Below, one piece after another: positions 38,886 through 39,755 of a stretch of 64,000 nt of DNA. Position 1 is the first letter of the stretch. Each line of letters begins with the position of its first letter. A program made the position numbers and the translations under genes. The notes under the pieces were generated by a model, which worked only from the letters and a program-made list of their open reading frames with translations, was not told the origin of the DNA and ran no database searches. The stretch lies in the NCBI GenBank assembly GCA_947454485.1, contig CANGJJ010000008.1, positions 1-64,000 of the forward strand, written 5' to 3'. This DNA comes from Beijerinckiaceae bacterium. GTDB lineage: Bacteria; Pseudomonadota; Alphaproteobacteria; Rhizobiales; Beijerinckiaceae.

Positions 38886-38996
38886 AATCATGCTCCCCAA
38901 AGCTGCAAAGCTACCCCTTCGGGCCTTCGGATTCGGATTTTGTCAAGGAAGGTCTGGCACTAGGGAGTAGGGCGGTGGCGCCCTGAGGGACATCTG

Positions 38997-39365
38997 ATGA
39001 CCAAGACCGTGATGATCGTCGAAGACAATGAGCTGAATATGAAGCTCTTCAACGATCTGTTGGAGGCCCATGGCTATGCCACCGTGCAGACGCGCAGCGG
39101 CAAGGAGGCCGTGGGGCTGGCGCGCGCGCATAAGCCCGACCTCATCCTCATGGATATTCAGCTGCCTGAGATTTCGGGGCTGGATGTGACCAAAGAGCTG
39201 AAGGCCGATGCCGAGTTGCGCCATATCCCGGTCATTGCCATCACCGCCTTTGCGATGAAGGGGGATGAGGAGAAAATCCGGCAGGGGGGCTGTGAGGCCT
39301 ATCTGTCCAAGCCCATTTCCGTCGCGAAATTTCTGGAAACGGTGAAGAACTATCTGGGCGGCTGA
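38997..39365 (+). CDS. divK: single-domain response regulator DivK
   Basis: The 122-residue receiver domain starts [26 protein letters not shown], with the phospho-acceptor aspartate in [16 protein letters not shown], the switch region AITAFAMKG and the lysine in AYLSKPI. Sequence and length match DivK, the polarity and cell-cycle regulator that acts with PleC/DivJ and DivL upstream of CtrA. In Caulobacter and many relatives pleD follows directly; here no pleD is found before rpmG, only the RNA candidate. Confidence 0.92.
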
Positions 39366-39402
39366 TGAGCCGTTGCATTTCTGGGCGGTGGCGCTAGCGT
39401 CG

Positions 39403-39571
39403 CATCAGATGTGAATACCCTACGGAGAGCCAGGTCCGCCGCATCTCCTGGGTCCGTGGGGTCGGCCGGCTGGCGGGGGTAGGAGTGGCCTCCTCAACCC
39501 CGCTGGTCGGCCACCATCTGCCCTTGATGGCTGAAACGAAAAAAGGCGCCCGAATGGGGCGCCTTTTTCGT
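39403..39571 (+). ncRNA. candidate structured small RNA between divK and rpmG
   Basis: No protein frame fits here, but the sequence folds well. CAGATG (39406-39411) pairs with CATCTG (39515-39520) as a closing helix. Inside lie hairpin A (CGGA/CCAGG, 39423-39434, with CCTGG/TCCG, 39447-39456) and hairpin B, a 15-bp helix 39464-39478 with 39498-39512 containing three G-U pairs and capped by AGGAG-TGGC-CTCCT. A strong terminator ends it at 39571. TTGCAT (39373) and TAGCGT (39395), 16 apart, may be the promoter. I cannot assign a family: it lacks the SRP RNA tetraloop core, and tmRNA and RNase P are excluded by size. Confidence 0.5.
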
Positions 39572-39572
39572 T
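39535..39572. terminator. bidirectional Rho-independent terminator
   Basis: AACGAAAAAAGGCGCCC pairs with GGGCGCCTTTTTCGTT (one bulged A) around a GAAT loop. It ends both the plus-strand RNA candidate and the minus-strand rpmG transcript, whose stop codon is at 39588. Confidence 0.93.
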
Positions 39573-39587
39573 AGGAGATCCAAGATC

Positions 39588-39755
39588 TTACTTGATCTTG
39601 GTTTCCTTGAATTCGACATGCTTGCGGGCGACGGGATCATATTTCTTCATCGCCATCTTGTCGGTCTTGGTGCGTGCATTCTTCGACGTGACGTAGAAAT
39701 AGCCCGTGTCAGCGGTCGAGAGCAGCTTGATCTTGATATTGGCGGCCTTGGCCAT
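39588..39755 (-). CDS. rpmG: 50S ribosomal protein L33
   Basis: A short frame that translates to 55 residues beginning [20 protein letters not shown] and ending with VEFKETKIK, a textbook L33. It lacks the zinc-binding cysteine pairs (a C-minus type form, as usual in proteobacteria). AGGAT precedes the ATG by 7 bases. The gene is single, facing divK across the RNA candidate, with the bidirectional terminator 16 bases after its stop. Confidence 0.95.

What the first reader, a model, noticed from the sequence alone, without database searches (positions are those of the whole stretch)
39403..39571. Structured RNA candidate in the divK-rpmG gap
Seen: a closing helix (39406-39411 with 39515-39520), a two-part hairpin (39423-39456), a 15-bp G-U-containing helix (39464-39478 with 39498-39512) with a capped inner stem, and a strong terminator at 39535-39572. 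G-U pairs in place of G-C within a long helix suggest selection on structure rather than chance. No coding frame fits. I could not assign it to SRP, tmRNA, RNase P or any riboswitch I know; 6S RNA cannot be excluded.
Basis: partly seen in the sequence, partly recalled or inferred. Interest (0 to 1): 0.62.

Follow-up and report, generated by a model that had tools for sequence, protein, structure and literature searches.

The report
EcpR1, a known cell-cycle small RNA
The structured RNA between divK and rpmG is EcpR1, an already described small RNA that represses cell-cycle genes in rhizobia and their relatives, so the finding is real but ordinary.

Summary
The structure is real and already known. 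Window 39415-39517 (+) matches Rfam RF02500 (Atu_C6, "EcpR1") over the full model at 84.6 bits, gathering score 60. EcpR1 is a trans-acting sRNA characterised in Sinorhizobium meliloti, where it lies between divK-pleD and rpmG and represses gcrA and dnaA through its loop 1 (PMC4414408). The same RNA is found in 49 of 61 genomes searched, own included. The loop-1 core CAGGTCCGCCGCATCTCCTG is exact in nearly all copies read. The long second stem shows strong compensatory change: 11 of 15 pairs change on both sides. Its outer closing helix is not in the minimum-energy fold and its flanks are not conserved. In 12 of 29 congeners the gcrA leader carries a perfect 12-nt complement of the loop, where control windows reach 10 nt at most. 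That supports the known mechanism in this genus. In the window's own genome that gcrA site is degraded, and no dnaA site stands out. The locus here also lacks pleD. Already known; low interest.

The parts
39415..39517 (+). EcpR1 sRNA core (Rfam RF02500, full-length match)
   Evidence: 84.6 bits, gathering score 60, model 1-113/113
39417..39462 (+). SL1 hairpin: outer stem 39417-39426/39453-39462, inner stem 39430-39434/39447-39451
   Evidence: minimum-energy fold; 99-100% of cells paired in 34 related sequences, mostly invariant
39431..39450 (+). Loop-1 core CAGGTCCGCCGCATCTCCTG, which holds the target-binding (seed) region of S. meliloti EcpR1
   Evidence: exact in nearly all the EcpR1 copies read; function from PMC4414408
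39464..39512 (+). SL2 hairpin: 15-pair stem 39464-39478/39498-39512, capped by 39481-39485/39490-39494, with the UCCUC motif in its apical part
   Evidence: 11 of 15 pairs with changes on both sides, 93% of cells paired
39535..39572 (+). Intrinsic terminator hairpin AACGAAAAAAGGCGCC...GGCGCCTTTTTCGTT; symmetrical, so probably shared with convergent rpmG
   Evidence: folds at -26.1 (+) and -24.3 (-) kcal/mol, with a U tract on either strand
38997..39365 (+). divK (single-domain response regulator), upstream neighbour
   Evidence: Pfam PF00072 E 9.5e-27; 75-86% identical to its best relatives, mostly Hyphomicrobiales
39588..39755 (-). rpmG (ribosomal protein L33), convergent downstream neighbour
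   Evidence: Pfam PF00471 E 5e-16

Best explanation
This is the EcpR1 (SmelC291 / Atu_C6) trans-acting small RNA of a Hyphomicrobiales (Rhizobiales) bacterium. It is probably transcribed on its own from the divK-rpmG gap and ends at the 39535-39572 terminator (inferred). It folds into SL1 and SL2 (shown by covariation and conservation). It acts by pairing the invariant GC-rich loop of SL1 with mRNA leaders, gcrA above all, to lower their translation or stability (shown in S. meliloti; inferred here). The outcome would be slowed cell-cycle progression under stress or starvation (inferred from S. meliloti).
For: Full-length Rfam match above the gathering score, the only copy in the genome. 49 of 61 genomes searched (own included) carry it, 46 of them above cut-off, with 0 of 14 control genomes matching. 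Same neighbours, with divK upstream and convergent rpmG downstream, in most loci where both could be seen, as reported for S. meliloti. Loop 1 is exact in nearly all copies and the SL2 stem covaries. In 12 of 29 congeners the gcrA leader holds the perfect complement TGCGGCGGACCT, mostly near -103 from the AUG, and 15 of 29 hold 10 nt or more. Control windows reach 10 nt at most, in 145 of 20000. An EcpR1 homologue next to rpmG is transcribed in Methylosinus sporium (PMC12403871).
Against: In the window's own genome the gcrA site reads TGCGACGGTTCA, only partly complementary. gcrA ranks 27th and dnaA 55th by duplex energy among the start regions compared, which were mostly window genes. So targeting of these two mRNAs in this strain is not shown. 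No transcript data were available, and the simple promoter scan found nothing upstream.
Confidence: 0.97

Rival explanations
1. It is a true EcpR1 homologue by descent, but in this species it has shifted its main targets away from gcrA and dnaA.
For: Own gcrA site is degraded, and relatives L127, L135 and L136 also lack the 12-mer. Loop 1 stays invariant.
Against: Partial complementarity remains in the own gcrA leader, and a second weak site (CGCAGCGGACG, about -58) exists. Only two targets were examined, and duplex energies alone predict poorly.
Confidence: 0.25
2. It is a 6S RNA or a novel structured RNA class.
For: Long hairpin and low folding energy.
Against: Rfam assigns EcpR1 over the full length. 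No 6S match appears even at E 10.
Confidence: 0.01
3. It is only a 3' processing product or terminator region of the divK transcript, with no trans action.
For: It begins about 50 nt after the divK stop codon, and no sigma-70-like promoter was found by the simple scan.
Against: In S. meliloti it is an independent, stress-induced unit (PMC4414408). Here loop 1 is invariant across genera and complementary to gcrA leaders, and the distance to divK varies from about 70 nt to over 2 kb.
Confidence: 0.05

Closest known systems
EcpR1 (SmelC291/Sra33/SmrC10) of Sinorhizobium meliloti; Rfam RF02500 Atu_C6
   Same: Two-hairpin architecture, invariant SL1 loop UCCGCCGCAUCUCCU, UCCUC motif in SL2, divK upstream and rpmG downstream, a Rho-independent terminator, and gcrA-leader complementarity in congeners
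   Different: pleD is missing between divK and the RNA. The own gcrA site is degraded. The SL2 loop motif is partly closed by a 5-pair cap.
6S RNA
   Same: A long hairpin in an intergenic gap
   Different: No Rfam match to 6S. Two independent hairpins rather than one rod with a central bubble (6S architecture from own knowledge).

Membership tests
EcpR1 (RF02500) | Covariance-model score above the gathering score over the full model | tested here: met
   84.6 against 60 bits, positions 1-113/113
EcpR1 (RF02500) | Conserved SL1 loop UCCGCCGCAUCU | tested here: met
   Present inside the 39431-39450 core and in nearly all the copies read
EcpR1 (RF02500) | SL2 with a variable but paired stem and a UCCUC loop motif | tested here: met
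   11 of 15 stem pairs with double changes; UCCUC present
EcpR1 (RF02500) | Synteny: divK(-pleD) upstream, rpmG downstream and convergent | tested here: met
   Met except that pleD is absent between divK and the RNA
EcpR1 (RF02500) | Loop 1 pairs with gcrA and dnaA mRNA | tested here: inconclusive
   Perfect 12-nt gcrA match in 12 of 29 congeners; degraded in the own genome; no standout dnaA site
EcpR1 (RF02500) | Stress-induced independent transcript | not testable with these tools
   No RNA-seq data for this organism
6S RNA | Rfam 6S model match | tested here: not met
   No 6S match up to E 10

The most novel reading that the evidence does not exclude
In this subclade EcpR1 keeps its loop unchanged while the gcrA site decays and pleD is lost from the locus, so the sRNA has changed its main target without changing its seed.
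Probability: 0.15. Interest if true: 0.35.

Novelty: already known. Interest (0 to 1): 0.12.

Why it matters
It removes a false candidate for a new RNA class. It adds a modest comparative point: the EcpR1-gcrA pairing has a 12-nt perfect site in many members of this genus and has decayed in the window's own lineage.

Tried and rejected
6S and other RNA families: no match above a gathering score apart from EcpR1 and one tRNA elsewhere. Loop-mRNA duplex energies for the own gcrA and dnaA: not better than shuffles (gcrA) or other genes, so not used as support. A first search of gcrA limited to 60 nt upstream missed the site near -103, which appeared at 200 nt. The first null for complement length was contaminated by the gcrA sites themselves and was redone on dnaA loci. 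The first dnaA anchoring pattern failed for most loci and was replaced.

Full report
What is there. The gap between divK (38997-39365, +; Pfam response regulator) and rpmG (39588-39755, -; Pfam L33) holds a strongly folding stretch. 39403-39571 folds at -98.7 kcal/mol, z -7.4 against dinucleotide shuffles. The fold has two hairpins followed by a terminator. The terminator hairpin is almost symmetrical, with a U tract on both strands, so it can also serve the convergent rpmG.

Identity. cmscan of the window gives RF02500 Atu_C6 (EcpR1) at 84.6 bits, gathering score 60, over the full model. It is the only copy in the genome. Of 61 genomes (own plus relatives), 49 match and 46 pass the cut-off, with none of 14 control genomes matching. 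The divK relatives come mostly from Hyphomicrobiales, and most carry the same RNA 3' of divK or further downstream. EcpR1 was described in S. meliloti as a stress-induced trans-sRNA between divK-pleD and rpmG, with SL1 loop UCCGCCGCAUCU and an SL2 of variable stem with a UCCUCG motif (PMC4414408). Its family was already known in Xanthobacteraceae, Beijerinckiaceae and Hyphomicrobiaceae (PMC3927594). A homologue next to rpmG is transcribed in Methylosinus sporium (PMC12403871).

Structure under selection. In 34 aligned relatives (A1) 96.5% of cells pair. 11 pairs show changes on both sides, all in the SL2 stem, and no shuffle reaches any of the measures. Sliding the partner by 1-3 columns drops pairing to 32-52%. 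SL1 is nearly invariant, so it gives no covariation but shows sequence constraint.

Mechanism. In S. meliloti, loop 1 pairs with the gcrA leader (upstream end of a 122-nt leader) and with dnaA sites over the RBS and start codon, repressing both (PMC4414408). In the window's genus the gcrA leader contains TGCGGCGGACCT, the exact complement of AGGUCCGCCGCA, in 12 of 29 congeners, mostly at -101 to -106. In all, 15 of 29 have 10 nt or more. Random 230-nt windows from dnaA loci reach 10 nt at most (145 of 20000). The congeners are related, so these are not independent counts. In the own genome the corresponding position (after the shared CGTG) reads TGCGACGGTTCA, and duplex energies for gcrA and dnaA do not stand out. 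No dnaA site longer than 8 nt was found in the genus. The gcrA mechanism is therefore supported for the genus and inferred for this strain; a dnaA site was looked for and none stood out.

Local difference. In most relatives divK lies 1.5 kb or more upstream of ecpR1, room for the pleD gene described in S. meliloti. Here, and in some 15 other loci, divK lies directly upstream. That the intervening gene is pleD in each relative was not checked. The three GGDEF regions found in the own genome belong to other proteins. Two were scanned with Pfam and carry no receiver domain. The third reads as a GGDEF-EAL protein by eye. So pleD may be absent from this genome.

Verdict. A known sRNA in its known place. 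Interest is low.

Noticed in passing
window 39365-39415 and G000 C1 (L114-L116): pleD is missing between divK and ecpR1, and none of the three GGDEF regions in the genome looks like PleD (REC-REC-GGDEF), so this diguanylate cyclase may be lost. Several congeners also lack a gene between divK and ecpR1.
   Followed up: partly
L112 (own gcrA leader), about 110 nt upstream of the AUG: The EcpR1 site conserved in much of the genus (TGCGGCGGACCT) is degraded to TGCGACGGTTCA in the window's genome; relatives L127, L135 and L136 also lack it.
   Followed up: partly
window 38960-38996, upstream of divK: The divK start region ranks 2nd of those compared for duplex energy with EcpR1 loop 1 (-24.6 kcal/mol). 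divK was tested in S. meliloti because of its position and not confirmed as a target (PMC4414408).
   Followed up: no
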